A DNA stretch of 54,328 bases from contig JAFYBQ010000019.1 in assembly GCA_017540085.1 (NCBI GenBank), positions 1 through 54,328 of the forward strand, given 5' to 3'. Origin of the DNA: Synergistaceae bacterium (GTDB lineage: Bacteria; Synergistota; Synergistia; Synergistales; Aminobacteriaceae). The notes beneath the pieces were generated by a model, which was not told the DNA's origin, did no database searches, and worked only from the letters and a program-made list of their open reading frames with translations. Shown piece by piece: positions 9,777-54,328 of the stretch (position 1 is its first letter; the number at the start of each line of letters is the position of its first letter). The position numbers and the translations under genes are program-made.

Positions 9777-9809
9777 TCCCCTTGTCAGAAATGGCAGGGG
9801 GATATTTTT
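9777..9809 (+). terminator. Intrinsic terminator after gudD
   Basis: TCCCCTTGTCA (9777-9787) pairs with TGGCAGGGGG (9792-9801) around a GAAA tetraloop, followed by ATATTTTTC. It ends the tctCBA-gudD unit and separates it from the TIR gene 23 bases downstream. Confidence 0.8.
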
Positions 9810-9831: not shown

Positions 9832-11124
9832 ATGCCGGAAAATCAATCCTTCAAGTATTACGCATTCATAAGCTACAGCCACAAAGATCAGAAAATAGCC
9901 AAGAAATTACATAAGCACCTAGAACATTATCATCTTCCGTCAGCACTGCGGAAATCAAATCCCAATCTGCCCAAGAAACTTAGCCCCGTATTTATCGATG
10001 AGTCAGACCTTGTAGCAAGAGGCACATTATGGACAGGCATTCAGGCAAATCTTGACCGCTCAAATTATATTATCCTCATATGCTCGCCGAGCAGCGCAAA
10101 ATCACAGTACGTTAATGATGAAGTGAAGTACTTTATCGACAGCGGAAGGATCAATCACATTATCCCCCTCATTGTTGAGGGAGTCCCGCATTCAGGAGAC
10201 CCCGATACGGAATGTTTCCCGCCCACAATACTGGCACTGCCGCGAGAACAGGAGCTGCTCGGAATTGACTTGCAGAAATTCAGAATGCATGAGGCTTTTA
10301 TCAGAGTGATAGCAACATTGCTGAAGCTCGATATTGATGACTTCATCGCAAGGAACGCGAGAGAAAGAAAGAGAAAGAGAATCATATTTGCGTCATTCGC
10401 CGCCGCCGTCTTAATCATTGTAAGGCTGTTAATGCCCCCGCCCTATGATGAATTTCTTGCGGAAAACGTCATGGATCGTGCCTTAATCGCGTACTCCAGC
10501 GCAGGATCGCAATACGAAAGACTCCGCGCCCTAGCAGACACCGCCGCCGATAATCCGTCAGACTTCAGCCAGTATTTTCGCTCGTACAAACGGACTCAGG
10601 CGTATTTGAGTTCATCAACGGAAAGCAATGTATCACTTCAATATTTGTCCGACATGATGGAAACGGGAGAGGTAATTCCATGGTCAAGAGAACCGATGAG
10701 CCGCCAAGAGTGTGAAGAGCTTCTGACACTACCGGACAAGCGCGGGGAGGAGTACGGGAAATTAGCTGACGTTCTGGAGTTTGTGATGACTGATGATTGG
10801 GCGAAGCGTTATTACGGGAGTCGATATATTGAGCTTCTCAGGGGACTTCTTGAGATTGACGCGGGAATTTCCGCAACGCTCTATGAGATCGTATGTTCTC
10901 CGCATATCGCAGGGAAATATGATGACGAGTCAGCAAAGGCGCGGCAGTACACGTCTAATTTCTCGTCCCATCCCAAACAGAATGAACACCTGAATGGCGA
11001 AAATGTACAGCAGGCAAAAGTAACTCTCGCAAGCCTCCGGGGAAAAAGGGATGAACAAATCAGGGCTATGGATTCCTGCGGCGTGTTCGAGGCATATAAC
11101 CAGAAAAATCAAAGTGAGGAATGA
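9832..11124 (+). CDS. Membrane-anchored TIR-domain protein
   Basis: The 430-residue product begins with a TIR domain (residues about 8-150). YYAFISYSHKDQ is the classic strand A/box 1, FIDESDLVARGTLW is the BB-loop region, and IILICSPSSAKSQYVNDEV carries a Glu (residue 97) in the place of the catalytic Glu of NAD-cleaving TIR domains. Residues about 184-203 after RERKRKR form one membrane segment. The following about 225 residues match nothing I know and would lie outside the membrane if the TIR half is cytoplasmic. ATG 9832 is preferred over upstream in-frame starts because AAAGGAG lies 9 bases before it and the upstream part overlaps the terminator. It is paired with the secreted protein 6 bases downstream. 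NADase, signalling or defence roles are all inference. Confidence 0.85.
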   Translation: MPENQSFKYYAFISYSHKDQKIAKKLHKHLEHYHLPSALRKSNPNLPKKLSPVFIDESDLVARGTLWTGIQANLDRSNYIILICSPSSAKSQYVNDEVKYFIDSGRINHIIPLIVEGVPHSGDPDTECFPPTILALPREQELLGIDLQKFRMHEAFIRVIATLLKLDIDDFIARNARERKRKRIIFASFAAAVLIIVRLLMPPPYDEFLAENVMDRALIAYSSAGSQYERLRALADTAADNPSDFSQYFRSYKRTQAYLSSSTESNVSLQYLSDMMETGEVIPWSREPMSRQECEELLTLPDKRGEEYGKLADVLEFVMTDDWAKRYYGSRYIELLRGLLEIDAGISATLYEIVCSPHIAGKYDDESAKARQYTSNFSSHPKQNEHLNGENVQQAKVTLASLRGKRDEQIRAMDSCGVFEAYNQKNQSEE

Positions 11125-11130
11125 TATTGC

Positions 11131-12291
11131 ATGAGGAAAAATATTTTTGCGGCTGTTCTCATTGCGGCGTGTTTCGTTTTTTCGCCGGGGAAATCATGCG
11201 CTGAAGCCCCGTCAGAAGTAAGGCTGCTTAATGACCTTCTCGGATATATATACTGCGCTGAAACTATTTGCGGCGATATTCAGTGGGTGATTGACTATAT
11301 TGACAGGTTTGACAGTGAAAAAAACTGGGAAAATTTGCAGCTCGCACGGGCGGCACTGGTCATAGCGAAATCAGACATAGAGAAAACAAGACTTCCCAAG
11401 CCCGAAATTACAGCGGACGATTACAAGAAATTCATGAGGCGGAGAATTGATGTGAGCTTCCTTGAGAGCCTCGGCCCGGCGTTCAAAGCAACGCAGACGA
11501 CAATTCTTAATGACTGCATTAATTTGAACAACTCACTCATGCTTGAAGTGTTCCTCAAAGACGGCTGGAAAAGAGGCATGAGAATCGCGGCAAATGCCCG
11601 GAAATGTGCGGACTACGAAATACGTTCCCTTGCGAATATGGCTGATTATGCGCTGACGAGTCTTAATGACAGCGAGATTACCAGAAAATTCAATGCCCTT
11701 CTCGAAAAACATTGCCCGCAGACCCGCTCCCGTCAAAGAAAAAAAACTGAGTCCCTGGAGAAAATTGAAGCACATATGCAAGTTTTAGAGCAGGACTTAA
11801 TCGAAAATCTCACGGAATCTTCAAAAATTGTCGGGGAATCAACACACAGCTTTTACTTGATGAAAGACGCTGTAGAAAAAAAAGACTGGGAAGCAATCCG
11901 CCGAAACATCATGCCTATTTCAGACATGCCGCCGTATGTACCCATACCATTATGGATGAAAAATGCTGACGTTCATTACTTCTGGAAGAAAAATGACGGT
12001 GTGAAAATTCCGGCTGTGCGCTCAAAACTTGAAGAGCCTCCCTCAGAATCTCTCATACAACTTGGCGGAATGAGCCTCGAACAAGTCAAAGCCTGGCAGG
12101 ATGAGCTAAAGAGTATGGGACTCTCTCCCAAATGGAGCGGCGAAAAGAACGGAAAATATTACATCCTGTATCAGCTCGGAAGCGCAAAATTCAATGTTGT
12201 CTGGGAAAATGGCAAAGTCAATGTGATGATGGGCGAAAATCCCGTGTGCTTTATCCCATTGCTTTATATGTCCGTTATGAACAGCAGGTAA
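11131..12291 (+). CDS. Secreted protein of unknown function, partner of the TIR gene
   Basis: I do not recognise a family. The 386-residue product starts with a signal peptide (MRKNIFAAVLIAACFVF..., predicted cleavage after SCA at residue 24) with no lipobox. The mature part is mostly charged and helical, with coiled-coil-like stretches around residues 205-245 (EKIEAHMQVLEQDLIENL). A smaller C-terminal part (about 310-385) contains MSLEQVKAWQDELKSMGL and a strand-rich KYYILYQLGSAKFNVVW segment. It follows the TIR gene by 6 bases, so the two are probably translated from one message. Its export agrees with a role at the outer face of the membrane where the TIR protein's C-terminal part may sit. 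Confidence 0.75.
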   Translation: MRKNIFAAVLIAACFVFSPGKSCAEAPSEVRLLNDLLGYIYCAETICGDIQWVIDYIDRFDSEKNWENLQLARAALVIAKSDIEKTRLPKPEITADDYKKFMRRRIDVSFLESLGPAFKATQTTILNDCINLNNSLMLEVFLKDGWKRGMRIAANARKCADYEIRSLANMADYALTSLNDSEITRKFNALLEKHCPQTRSRQRKKTESLEKIEAHMQVLEQDLIENLTESSKIVGESTHSFYLMKDAVEKKDWEAIRRNIMPISDMPPYVPIPLWMKNADVHYFWKKNDGVKIPAVRSKLEEPPSESLIQLGGMSLEQVKAWQDELKSMGLSPKWSGEKNGKYYILYQLGSAKFNVVWENGKVNVMMGENPVCFIPLLYMSVMNSR

Positions 12292-12304
12292 AGGAGGCTC
12301 AATC

Positions 12305-13615
12305 ATGAAAATTATACAGGGCGGTACAGTCTCAAAACTCTTGGCAGGAGTCGAAATCCCGAAAATGTTCCGCGCAAAACAAATTTTCCCGCACGAATCA
12401 ATATCACCCTCAGACATTCCCGCGAAAATTTCCGCAGAGTTATCACGCGAACCGTTCGCCAGCAAAATCAAGCCCGGAATGAACATCGCAATCACAGCAG
12501 GAAGCCGCGGAGTCGCAAATGTCGCAATAATCACAAAAGCCATCGCCGATTTCGTGAAGTCCCGCGGCGCAATTCCCTTCATCGTTCCCGCAATGGGCAG
12601 CCACGGAGGCGCAACAGCCCAAGGACAGCTTGAAGTCCTCAAAGGCTACGGCATTACCCCGGACTCTATGGGCTGTGAGATTCGCTCAAGCATGGACGTT
12701 ATACACTTGGGCCTCTCTGACACCGGGCAGGATGTCTACATTGACCGCAACGCCTACGAGTCGGACGGGATAATAGTCTCCTGCCGTATCAAGCCTCATA
12801 ACGCCTTCAGGGGGAAATATGAATCAGGCCCGTGCAAAATGCTCGCTGTAGGTCTCGGAAAACAGAAAGGCGCGGAGCAGGTTCACGGCGCAGGAATGGC
12901 TCATATCGCCGAAAATATACCGTCAATCGCAAGAGTCATAATCGACAAAGCATCCGTACTTTTCGCCCTGCCGTGTATTGAGAATGCCTATGATGAAACT
13001 TTCAGGCTTGAAGCTGTTGACGCACACGACATTATGACACGTGAGCCGGAATTATTGAGGCTTGCTTTCTCGCTCATGCCGAAAATTATCGCGGGCGAGT
13101 GTGATGTTCTGATTGTTGACGAGACCGGGAAGAATTACAGCGGGACAGGAGTAGACCCGAATATTACCGGGACTTTCTCGACCGAATACGCCTCAGGAGG
13201 CGTGAAAGTTCAGCGGACTTGCTTCCTGCGGCTGAGTAATGAGAGTCATGGGAATGCTTTGGGAGTCGGACTCGCCAGCGTAATCACAAAAAGATTCTAT
13301 GACGCTATAGACCCCGAAATGATGTACCCTAACTGCATAACGTCAACCGTATTAGCAAGCGCGCGAATCCCCTGCGTAGTGTCAACCGACAAAGAAGCGG
13401 TGCAGATGTGCATACGTACATGTACGGGAATCGACAAAAATAACGTTCGAGTCATTCGAATCCCTAACAGCCTTCACATAGGGCATATCATGATGAGCGA
13501 GGCATATTATCGTGATGTCATGGCCGGAAAATTTGTGGGATTAACAGCAGAGAGTCAGCCGGAAAATTTATCGTTTGACGAAAACGGGACTCTAATCACA
13601 CCGATTATAGGGTAA
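12305..13615 (+). CDS. LarA-family (DUF2088) protein, probable 2-hydroxyacid racemase or epimerase
   Basis: LarA-family enzymes racemise 2-hydroxy acids with a nickel-pincer nucleotide cofactor. The 436-residue product has the two-domain family layout. The N-terminal part contains GMNIAITAGSRGVAN and the VPAMGSHGGATAQGQLEVL motif; the middle has KPHNAFRGKYESG followed by KMLAVGLGKQKGAEQVH, with lysines and histidines where LarA binds its cofactor. SHGNALGVGLASVITKRF is in the C-terminal half. ATG 12305 has AAGGAGG 8 bases upstream. It lies between the TIR pair and garD, so its substrate may be an aldarate-derived or related hydroxy acid; this is inference. The cofactor genes larB, larC and larE are not in the window, and lactate itself is only one possible substrate. 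Confidence 0.82.
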   Translation: MKIIQGGTVSKLLAGVEIPKMFRAKQIFPHESISPSDIPAKISAELSREPFASKIKPGMNIAITAGSRGVANVAIITKAIADFVKSRGAIPFIVPAMGSHGGATAQGQLEVLKGYGITPDSMGCEIRSSMDVIHLGLSDTGQDVYIDRNAYESDGIIVSCRIKPHNAFRGKYESGPCKMLAVGLGKQKGAEQVHGAGMAHIAENIPSIARVIIDKASVLFALPCIENAYDETFRLEAVDAHDIMTREPELLRLAFSLMPKIIAGECDVLIVDETGKNYSGTGVDPNITGTFSTEYASGGVKVQRTCFLRLSNESHGNALGVGLASVITKRFYDAIDPEMMYPNCITSTVLASARIPCVVSTDKEAVQMCIRTCTGIDKNNVRVIRIPNSLHIGHIMMSEAYYRDVMAGKFVGLTAESQPENLSFDENGTLITPIIG

Positions 13616-52601: not shown

Positions 52602-53219
52602 ATGGAAAACACGTATAACATAGCACAAGCAGCAAAATATTTAGGCTTTAAGGTAAAAACACTCCAAAAGTGGGACAGGGAAGGAAGGTTAATTCCCGCT
52701 TATCGAACTAAAACTAATCGGAGAGTTTATACGCAAAGCCAGCTTGACGAATTTATAGGATTGCGGACGCAAGATACACGCACAAGAGTTATAGCCTATT
52801 GCCGAGTATCAAGTACAGCACAGAAGCCGGATTTAGTAAATCAGCTTGAAATCCTGAAAGAATATTGCTCAAAGTCTGGATTATCTAACGTAGAGTTTAT
52901 CTCGGAAATCGGCGGCGGATTAAACTTTGAGCGCAAGAAATTCCTTGAGATTATGGACGCAGTAGAACGGTATGAAGTGAAAATGCTGATAATCGCCCAT
53001 AAAGACAGGTTAGCGCGTTTCGGTTTTGAATATTTCCGTCATTTTCTTGCAAAACATAACTGCGAGCTTGTAATCCTGAATGATGAAAAAATGTCGCCAG
53101 AGCCGGAAATGGTAGAAGACTTAATGACAATAATACATTGTTTCAGTTCACGGCTTTACGGGTTAAGGAATTACCGCAAGTCGCTCAAAGAGGCATTAAA
53201 GAATGGGCAAACGTCTTAG
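52602..53219 (+). CDS. tnpA: IS607 transposase, serine recombinase
   Basis: TnpA of IS607 catalyses excision and insertion as a small serine recombinase. The 205-residue product has an N-terminal MerR-like HTH (NIAQAAKYLGFKVKTLQKWD) and then the catalytic domain with IAYCRVSSTAQKPDLVNQLE (active Ser near residue 70), MLIIAHKDRLARFGFEYF, and a C-terminal SRLYGLRNYRK segment. All typical elements are present and intact. ATG 52602 has no ribosome site, but TAAAAT lies 6 bases upstream, so the transcript could be leaderless. Confidence 0.93.
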   Translation: MENTYNIAQAAKYLGFKVKTLQKWDREGRLIPAYRTKTNRRVYTQSQLDEFIGLRTQDTRTRVIAYCRVSSTAQKPDLVNQLEILKEYCSKSGLSNVEFISEIGGGLNFERKKFLEIMDAVERYEVKMLIIAHKDRLARFGFEYFRHFLAKHNCELVILNDEKMSPEPEMVEDLMTIIHCFSSRLYGLRNYRKSLKEALKNGQTS

Positions 53220-54328
53220 AGCGTATAAAGTAGAACTAAAACCCACAGACGAACAAATACAAAAAATCGAGCGCACTATAGGCGTATGTCGTTATGTCTA
53301 CAATCTTTTCATAGGTATTAACCGAGATAATTACCGTAACAGCACTCAAAGCTATATGTCAGGCTATGATTTCTCAAAATGGCTGAACAATGAATACAGG
53401 AAGGCTAACCCTGATAAGTTATGGATATGGGAAGTATCATCAAAAGCAGTGAAAAAATCCATAATGAACGCAGATACAGCATATAAAAATTACCTGAAAG
53501 GTAAGGCAGGATTTCCGAATTTCAAGAAGCGTAACGGGCGACCATCAAGTATGTATCTTCCGCGCAATAATCTAAATGATTTGATGATAGAGCGTCATAA
53601 AGGGAAAATCCCTACATTAGGTTGGGTACGTTTTAAGGAACGCGGTTACGTCCCATGCAAAACAAAAGCAGTAAGCGTAACAATAACGAAACGAGCAGGA
53701 AGATATTTTGCGTCATTCTTGTTTGAGATAAATACAGCTAATCCCGTCAGCACAACACAATCTGAAGCTATAGGAATAGACTTAGGGATAAAAAGTTTTG
53801 CGGTAGTCTCTGATGGCAGGAATTATCCGAATATCAACAAGTCCGAACGAGCAAGGAAATTAATCAAGAGGCTGAAGCGTGAACAGCGTAAATTTTCGCG
53901 CAAGATACATAAACTTAAACAACGAAAGGAGGAAACTGCTAGTAAAAAGTGTAAGCGTTCAAACCTAGACAAACAAAGGCTAAAAGTACAGCGGGCGTAT
54001 ATGAGACTAACGAATAAGCGTCATGACTATATCAACAAAACTGTACATGAAATAGTAAGCAGACGGCCTGAATATATCACGATAGAAGACTTGAACGTGT
54101 CGGGAATGCTGAAGAACCGCCATTTATCACGGGCAATAGCTGAATGTGAATTTTATTACTTCCGCGCATTGCTTGAACGGTAAGTGCCGTGAGTATGGGA
54201 TACAACTGCGAATAGTAGACAGATTTTATGCAAGCAGTAAAACGTGTTCCCGATGTGGACATATCAAGAAGGATTTGAAGCTGTCAGACCGTGTATATGA
54301 GTGTACAGAATGCGGATTAGTAATTGAC
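53203..54328 (+). pseudogene. tnpB: TnpB RNA-guided nuclease gene, frameshifted and cut by the window end
   Basis: TnpB is an RuvC nuclease guided by an element-derived RNA and ancestral to Cas12. The first frame (326 residues, 53203-54183) includes the N-terminal HTH-like part (TDEQIQKIERTIGVCRYVYN), the RuvC-I Asp in EAIGIDLGIKSFAVVSDG (residue 193), a basic helix, and the RuvC-II Glu in YITIEDLNVSGML (residue 295). It then stops at TAA 54181. The next frame, from 54182, continues with KCREYGIQLRIVDRFYASSK, the zinc-finger pairs CSRCG and CTECG, and GLVID up to the window end. This is a one-base frameshift; removing the T at 54181 restores the family sequence. The last RuvC Asp is expected further on. 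Confidence 0.85.

What the first reader, a model, noticed from the sequence alone, without database searches (positions are those of the whole stretch)
9832..12291. Membrane-anchored TIR protein paired with a secreted protein inside an aldarate gene cluster
A TIR domain with the Glu expected for NAD cleavage is fused to one membrane segment and about 225 unrecognised residues. A gene for an exported protein of unknown family starts 6 bases later. The pair lies between the gudD terminator and the LarA-like gene, as if inserted into the aldarate module. A membrane-spanning TIR whose outer part could meet a secreted partner suggests a sensing device, possibly defence or nutrient or stress signalling. 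The role is inference.
Basis: partly seen in the sequence, partly recalled or inferred. Interest (0 to 1): 0.55.

Follow-up and report, generated by a model that had tools for sequence, protein, structure and literature searches.

The report
Membrane TIR receptor with secreted partner
A gut bacterium carries a one-pass membrane protein with an immune-type TIR domain inside the cell and a sensor-like part outside, next to a gene for an exported protein that a related species fuses onto that part, so the two genes look like the halves of one receptor, resembling a back-to-front bacterial Toll receptor.

Summary
Window 9832-11124 encodes a 430-aa TIR (Glu97) with one membrane helix and a helical outer domain. 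A Sec-exported 386-aa protein starts 6 bases later. Both lie between the gudD terminator and the LarA-like gene. The pairing is real: the exported protein is found in 3 of 43 genus genomes, always with this TIR, adjacent in two and FUSED into one 804-aa chain (signal peptide lost) in the third. Glu97 is invariant in 42 of 42 aligned modules and is E in 93 of 95 wider rows.

The aldarate link looks positional only. The gudD-LarA gap is empty in one congener, holds a TIR-TM-repeat gene in another and an unrelated ORF in a third. The window TIR is most like that same-slot TIR, while its sensor half is of another type, which suggests a swapped sensor (moderate support).

The TIR-TM module is widespread (307 relatives; 79 loci read) with differing outer parts. 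At seven genus loci it follows a membrane protein with Rossmann domains and a remote RyR-like end. In this genome that partner gene is broken.

Best reading: a modular transmembrane NADase receptor, perhaps for defence or stress. Ligand, enzyme activity and output are untested.

The parts
9777..9802 (+). gudD terminator-like hairpin that marks the left edge of the inserted cassette
   Evidence: 11-pair stem, 4-base loop, TATTTTT tail; a similar hairpin (by eye) lies between gudD and the LarA-like gene in G029 and left of the TIR in G031
9832..11124 (+). TIR-TM-helical receptor gene (430 aa)
   Evidence: Pfam TIR_2 E 3.4e-15; AlphaFold2 model mean pLDDT 89.3; TIR part matches SPARTA, SARM1 and animal receptor TIR structures, Z about 15-16
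9853..10326 (+). TIR domain, residues about 8-165; Glu97 codon at 10120-10122
   Evidence: Glu97 42 of 42
10381..10437 (+). single membrane helix, residues 184-202, preceded by ERKRKR (positive-inside: N-terminus in, C-terminus out, predicted)
   Evidence: helix 168-200 in the model
10450..11121 (+). predicted exoplasmic all-helical sensor domain, residues 207-430
   Evidence: helices 207-240, 242-259, 265-278, 291-320, 322-354, 368-378, 392-415, 418-429; profile A1 found in 4 of 185 phylum genomes
11131..12291 (+). exported partner protein (386 aa; helical then beta-rich by a low-confidence model)
   Evidence: relatives in G030 (adjacent ORF) and G062 (fused)
11131..11205 (+). signal peptide region of the partner (residues 1-25, cleavage site judged by eye)
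   Evidence: hydrophobic only at windows 5-6; replaced by a linker without a hydrophobic segment in the G062 fusion
12291..12305 (+). right edge of the insertion: partner stop, then AGGAGG and the ATG of the LarA-like gene

Best explanation
The two genes encode one receptor. The TIR domain is in the cytoplasm, one helix crosses the inner membrane, and the helical domain outside forms a sensing unit with the exported partner. A change outside (an envelope or phage-contact signal is my guess) clusters the TIR domains, which then cleave NAD+, either depleting it or making a cADPR-type signal. At sister loci the likely receiver of that signal is an adjacent membrane protein with tandem Rossmann domains and an RyR-like end. 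Here that protein is a broken gene elsewhere in the genome, so the window pair would act by NAD+ loss or through an unknown receiver. The pair is a cassette inserted after the gudD terminator, in a slot where the sensor half of the TIR gene has probably been exchanged. Shown by sequence: architecture, pairing, fusion, occupied and unoccupied slot. Inferred: topology, joint sensing, NADase activity, output, defence role.
For: Fusion in G062: one 804-aa ORF TIR-TM-helical-partner, in which the signal peptide is replaced by a linker without a hydrophobic segment. Partner found in 3 of 43 genus genomes, always with the helical TIR. In 12 of 12 proteins checked 4-7 K/R precede and 0-4 follow the membrane segment; 84 of 90 near-full TIR ORFs in fetched loci have exactly one hydrophobic segment, at the module's end. 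Glu97 42 of 42. gudD-LarA slot without the pair in G029, with a TIR-TM-repeat gene in G031, with an unrelated ORF in G010. Mosaic: N half groups with the same-slot TIR (support 87/87), C half resembles the helical type, max-chi permutation p 0.0005 with G030. Rossmann/RyR-like neighbour and TIR module share 12 genomes (16 and 18 of 185), p 1.3e-11 uncorrected for kinship. The G062 copy lies near type I methyltransferase and specificity genes.
Against: G001 has the helical TIR with no partner found (genome 80% complete), so the partner is not strictly needed. By eye no known defence gene is next to the window copy. No STALD (ThsA-type) match in 43 genus genomes, though that search had no working control. 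The Rossmann/RyR-like gene of this genome is broken in three frames. The partner's model is poor (pLDDT 55.8) and contact between the two was not modelled. A conserved Glu does not prove catalysis, and the top structural row is an animal receptor TIR (Hydra TRR-2). Mosaic support is moderate: no branch of the tree reaches the strong mark, and in codons 176-200 only G030 (85%), not G001 (52%) or G062 (49%), is closer to the window than G031 (55%).
Confidence: 0.5

Rival explanations
1. Non-enzymatic TIR scaffold: the TIR domain only clusters and recruits other proteins, and the pair signals by protein contact.
For: Animal TLR-type TIRs work this way (established knowledge), and an animal receptor TIR heads the structural list (Hydra TRR-2, Z 16.3).
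Against: Glu97 is kept in 42 of 42 and 93 of 95 rows; NAD+-using SPARTA and SARM1 TIRs score within 1 Z of the top.
Confidence: 0.2
2. Nutrient or aldarate sensor that controls the surrounding gud/LarA/altronate operon.
For: Position inside the operon, same strand, LarA-like ATG 13 bases after the partner stop.
Against: gudD and LarA-like gene adjacent without the pair in G029, separated by a different TIR gene in G031 and by an unrelated ORF in G010; the pair lies after a uvrB-like gene in G030 and the fusion before an RNase J-like gene in G062 (names by eye).
Confidence: 0.1
3. Contact-dependent or secreted toxin system: the exported protein is an effector and the TIR protein its membrane immunity or export partner.
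For: Exported, of unknown family, rare and patchy (3 of 43 genomes).
Against: No family over a cut-off in Pfam or NCBIfam and none in PADLOC; its fusion to the outer side of the TIR receptor in G062 fits a receptor part rather than a released toxin.
Confidence: 0.06
4. Decaying genomic debris: TIR genes are being lost in this genus and the pair has no current role.
For: The other TIR genes of this genome and its Rossmann/RyR-like gene are broken; the G010 and G029 copies are broken too.
Against: Both window ORFs are open over 816 codons with ribosome-binding-site-like sequences, and many columns are invariant at 39-55% identity to relatives.
Confidence: 0.07

Closest known systems
Thoeris (ThsB TIR with ThsA effector)
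   Same: TIR that matches ThsB models weakly (Pfam ThsB_TIR E 1.4e-8; PADLOC ThsB E 0.0011 for the window, and 5.3e-6 for the G062 fusion); at sister loci a TIR gene follows a candidate nucleotide-sensing membrane protein.
   Different: TIR is fused to a membrane helix and an outer domain, and its partner is exported; no SIR2-SLOG or Macro gene seen beside it (by eye). ThsA and ThsB facts from passages of PMC7272460.
Toll-like receptors and Toll (metazoa)
   Same: One membrane span, outer sensor, inner TIR; a secreted co-factor would recall MD-2 or Spaetzle (recalled).
   Different: Order reversed (TIR first, sensor last); no LRRs; bacterial TIR family. Toll architecture as in passages of PMC7075850.
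Bacterial TIR-TM-X proteins with repeat or other outer domains (uncharacterised, in public genomes)
   Same: Same TIR, juxtamembrane and TM module, 36-71% identity to the window among the 41 rows aligned.
   Different: The window's helical domain and its exported partner were found only in this genus (4 of 185 phylum genomes; 3 of 43 genus genomes; no further one among 84 fetched TIR loci). The partner was not searched in the whole phylum, only in the genus and in 61 relatives.
TIR genes next to 2TM SLATT genes (phages of Firmicutes)
   Same: TIR coupled to a membrane protein in a gene neighbourhood (PMC9503650, passages).
   Different: There the membrane part is a separate small protein; here TIR, membrane helix and outer domain are one chain.
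Phage RyDEP / RyR R12-domain proteins
   Same: Remote RyR-like end of the neighbour family at sister loci; R12 domains bind or cleave 2'cADPR and 3'cADPR (PMC13232231, a preprint, passages read).
   Different: RyDEP is a phage anti-defence protein; ours would be a membrane receiver, and the match is below Pfam's cut-off.

Membership tests
TIR domain family (Pfam TIR_2) | Profile match over the curated cut-off and TIR fold | tested here: met
   57 bits against 28; model against SPARTA and SARM1 TIR chains, Z about 15-16 at 1.6-2.7 A over 123-130 residues; Foldseek alone gives E 1.9e-3 at best, probability 1.00
NAD+-cleaving TIR enzymes | Conserved catalytic Glu | tested here: met
   Glu97 invariant 42 of 42, E in 93 of 95 and D in 2; that this Glu is the catalytic one is by position and established knowledge
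NAD+-cleaving TIR enzymes | NADase or cyclase activity | not testable with these tools
   needs biochemistry
Thoeris | ThsA effector gene (SIR2-SLOG/STALD) with the TIR gene | tested here: inconclusive
   STALD PF18185 in 0 of 43 genus genomes, but no control genome rang; none seen by eye beside the window pair; Macro and SIR2 models were not searched
Thoeris | ThsB model match at family strength | tested here: inconclusive
   best PADLOC ThsB E 0.0011, 16.8 bits, behind a SAVED-TIR model at 2.5e-5; Pfam ThsB_TIR 35.5 bits against 21.2, behind TIR_2
Thoeris | Anti-phage activity | not testable with these tools
   needs phage challenge
Single-pass TIR receptor (works like a Toll-type receptor) | One membrane helix between TIR and sensor, TIR inside | tested here: met
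   window: one hydrophobic segment; K/R 4-7 before and 0-4 after in 12 of 12 proteins, 11 of which have a single segment (G031 contig 2 has a second); 84 of 90 ORFs in fetched loci have exactly one; topology predicted, not measured
TIR plus exported partner as one unit | Partner gene found with the TIR across genomes, or fused | tested here: met
   3 of 3 partner genomes carry it beside or fused to the helical TIR; the reverse is 3 of 4
RyR (PF02026) for the neighbour family at sister loci | Match over the Pfam cut-off | tested here: not met
   0 of 9 genomes over cut-off; the 5 sub-threshold matches (E 0.86-5.15, in 5 of 9 genomes) all lie in the C-terminal end of this family, but 2 of 14 control genomes also ring at E up to 10; a relative with a true RyR match aligns to its Rossmann part

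The most novel reading that the evidence does not exclude
Bacteria across several phyla run a modular TIR receptor system: an inner TIR enzyme, one membrane helix and an exchangeable outer sensor (repeat, WD40-like, beta, or helical plus exported partner), which makes a cADPR-type signal read by a neighbouring membrane protein with RCK-like Rossmann domains and an RyR-like end. That would be a bacterial counterpart of the cADPR-to-ryanodine-receptor axis, and the window pair is a variant whose sensor recruits, and in one species has absorbed, a second, exported protein.
Probability: 0.28. Interest if true: 0.85.

Novelty: new variant of a known kind. Interest (0 to 1): 0.56.

Why it matters
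The best-studied bacterial TIR proteins sense phage or foreign nucleic acid inside the cell (established knowledge). A TIR enzyme wired through the membrane to an outer sensor would mean that bacteria also trigger NAD+-based responses from outside the cell, as animal Toll receptors do. The natural fusion gives a ready construct for structure work, and the differing outer parts make the question 'what does it sense' directly testable by domain swaps in a laboratory strain.

Tried and rejected
Homology between the helical outer domain and the partner's helical half: hhalign probability 0.2, not supported. Known fold for the helical domain: the structure searches effectively covered only the TIR part, so nothing is claimed. 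Partner structure: pLDDT 55.8, so its matches are not used. Phage or plasmid carriage: TIR module in viral contigs, 12 pattern hits, 0 relatives; partner in viral contigs, 24 pattern hits, 0 relatives; TIR in 50,697 phage records, no match at E 0.001; partner in 72,556 plasmid records, no match at E 0.01. TIR in plasmids and partner in phage records were not searched. Partner in PADLOC: none. RyR in the neighbour family by Pfam: nothing over cut-off. STALD search had no working control. An iterated neighbour profile changed membership between rounds (13, 15, 13, 15 members), so its larger hit list is not counted; the uniterated profile finds the neighbour family in 6 of 61 named loci outside the genus. 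Papers: no description of this pair, of TIR-TM proteins with Sel1 repeats or of a TIR with an RCK/RyR-like neighbour appeared among the results listed by searches (lists are capped, and subscription papers are missing from that library); a 2015 comparative study by Burroughs, Aravind and colleagues on nucleotide-centred conflict systems is recalled as relevant but was not read. Of PMC7075850, PMC13232231, PMC9503650, PMC13142454 and PMC7272460 only passages were seen.

Full report
WHAT IS THERE. The finding's coordinates are right. The first gene (9832-11124) encodes 430 residues: a TIR domain (Pfam TIR_2, E 3.4e-15), one membrane helix at 184-202 with ERKRKR just before it, and about 225 residues with no match over a curated cut-off and none in PDB sequences at E 0.1. 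An AlphaFold2 model on 42 aligned sequences has mean pLDDT 89.3 and shows the outer part as an all-helical domain, residues 207-430. The TIR part aligns to SPARTA TIR (8qlp_A, Z 16.0, 1.6 A over 123 residues) and SARM1 TIR (6o0q_A, Z 15.2); the top row is an animal receptor TIR, Hydra TRR-2 (Z 16.3), so fold alone does not choose between enzyme and scaffold. The second gene (11131-12291) encodes an exported protein of 386 residues with no family over a cut-off. Named relatives of the locus are Synergistaceae genomes assembled from ruminant guts, one labelled Fretibacterium.

THE PAIR IS REAL. A profile of the exported protein finds it in 3 of 43 genomes of the genus: own, G030 and G062 (the single-sequence search gave the same three; a set of 61 relatives that lacked G062 gave two). 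In G030 the two genes overlap (GTG start within the TIR end). In G062 they are one ORF of 804 codons: TIR, membrane helix, helical domain, then the partner, with the signal peptide replaced by a linker and no second hydrophobic segment. This fusion is the best evidence that the two work together and that the C-terminal side of the helix is outside. A profile of the helical domain finds 4 of 185 genomes of the phylum: the same three and G001, in which the partner was not found (genome 80% complete). So partner to TIR is 3 of 3, and helical TIR to partner is 3 of 4.

GLUTAMATE. Glu97 is invariant in 15 of 15 modules of the genus, in 42 of 42 across several phyla and is E in 93 of 95 rows, D in 2, in a wider alignment.

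THE SLOT. The TIR lies after the gudD hairpin (9777-9802). In G029 the gudD stop and the LarA-like ATG are 67 bases apart, with a similar hairpin (by eye) and nothing else between them. In G031 the same slot holds a 621-aa TIR-TM gene with Sel1-type repeats (by eye) and no partner. In G010 it holds a 464-aa ORF with no match to window proteins. The pair itself lies after a uvrB-like gene in G030, and the fusion lies after the Rossmann/RyR-like neighbour gene, near type I methyltransferase and specificity genes, and before an RNase J-like gene in G062 (the restriction subunit was not looked for). Thus the aldarate operon looks like a landing place, not a partner.

SENSOR SWAP. The window TIR is closest to the G031 TIR from the same slot (codons 76-150: 88, 84, 79% nucleotide identity in 25-codon bins, against 73, 65, 63% for G030), while codons 176-200 are closest to the helical TIR of G030 (85% against 55% for G031; G001 52% and G062 49% are not closer). 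In a tree of 14 TIR modules the window groups with the G031 slot TIR (87/87), not with the other helical ones. A max-chi-square permutation test (2000 shuffles) gives p 0.0005 with a break near codon 167 for G030 as the other parent, p 0.0005 (codon 201) for G001 and p 0.004 (codon 191) for G062. No branch of the tree is strongly supported, so this is moderate evidence that the slot kept its TIR and changed its sensor.

A WIDE FAMILY. The TIR-TM module occurs in 18 of 185 genomes of the phylum, 14 of them in this genus of 43. In a scan of one genome for each of 84,980 species, 307 of 387 pattern matches encode relatives; 79 loci were kept, from Synergistaceae, Coriobacteriia, Bacteroidales, Clostridia, Spirochaetaceae, Thermoguttaceae and others, many from animal guts. 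With five further loci of the phylum, 90 ORFs hold a near-full module and at least 60 residues after it; 84 of these have exactly one hydrophobic segment, near the module's end, 3 have none, 1 has two and 2 have three. The part after it varies: Sel1-type repeats, WD40-like, a YADYV-type repeat protein or a beta-rich domain (labels by eye). A second fixed slot, between an oligopeptide-binding and an amino-acid-binding protein gene, holds TIR genes with Sel1-type repeats in five genomes, two of them broken and one with only one flank on its contig.

A LIKELY RECEIVER AT SISTER LOCI. Seven genus loci have, directly upstream on the same strand, a gene for a ~640-aa membrane protein: G001, G018, G025, G013, G030 (contig 1), G061 (its TIR is broken) and G062. 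In G023 it is divergent. The family occurs in 16 of 185 genomes and shares 12 with the TIR module (Fisher p 1.3e-11 in the phylum, 2.2e-6 in the genus, not corrected for kinship). It has membrane segments, Rossmann-type regions (Pfam matches below cut-off) and an end with an invariant EHLRW. PF02026 (RyR) is below cut-off, but all 5 weak matches among 9 genomes fall in that end (2 of 14 control genomes also ring at that loose limit). The best PDB profile hit of the end is ryanodine receptor 1 at E 0.046, over 21 positions, neither stretch significant alone. A 633-aa ORF of G090 with a true RyR match aligns with the family's Rossmann part (hhalign probability 77). With the uniterated profile, relatives lie within the fetched stretch in 6 of 61 named TIR-TM loci outside the genus (Clostridiales, Spirochaetaceae, Lentimicrobiaceae, Bacteroidales); two of the six pass the cut-off for a potassium-channel RCK domain. 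RyR R12 domains bind or cleave cADPR isomers according to a 2026 preprint, of which I read passages (PMC13232231). In the window's own genome this gene (contig 29) is broken in three frames beside a TIR remnant, and the contig 12 TIR is frameshifted, so the window TIR is the only intact TIR-TM gene found there.

MECHANISM AND LIMITS. The best reading is a one-pass TIR receptor whose outer sensor includes the exported partner and whose inner enzyme acts on NAD+. Pairing is well supported and topology is well predicted; enzyme activity, ligand, output and any defence role are inferred. Against a full two-gene signalling system in this genome is the loss of the candidate receiver. Against defence is the metabolic setting of the window copy; for it are the type I methyltransferase and specificity genes near the fusion and a TIR cluster with NB-ARC-TPR proteins in G023.

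Noticed in passing
L054:4542-6464; L033:2243-4219; L036:743-2803; L037:11293-13212; L044:8031-9980; L047:3350-5293; L221:6193-8130: Membrane protein with Rossmann-type regions and an RyR-like end, directly upstream of TIR-TM genes; relatives near TIR-TM genes in other phyla (L083, L087, L117, L120, L127, L134). Possible receiver of a TIR signal.
   Followed up: partly
L049:9313-11374; L220:4791-7068 (own genome, contigs 12 and 29): The other TIR-TM gene and the Rossmann/RyR-like gene of this genome are broken by frameshifts or truncated, leaving the window TIR as the only intact one found.
   Followed up: yes
L040, L041, L043, L049, L050: A second fixed slot, between oligopeptide-binding and amino-acid-binding protein genes (names by eye), holds TIR-TM genes with Sel1-type repeats in five congeners; in L043 only one flank is on the contig.
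   Followed up: partly
L038:9209-10921 and L039:5292-7004: A protein with two TIR modules separated by a membrane segment of the Rossmann/RyR-like family, as if formed by an in-frame deletion between three genes; the two contigs carry the same copy.
   Followed up: no
L042:455-12994 (G023 contig 281): Cluster of TIR and TIR-like genes, including two TIR-NB-ARC-TPR proteins, beside a TIR-TM gene.
   Followed up: partly
L214:8096-10204 and L218:2623-5544: Copies of the Rossmann/RyR-like gene followed by a different kind of TIR protein (weak ThsB matches), or by a 973-aa protein that begins like a DUF4062 protein (recalled), instead of TIR-TM.
   Followed up: no
window 52602-54183: Serine recombinase of IS607 type followed by a TnpB-like gene at the window's right end (named from sequence by eye).
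   Followed up: no
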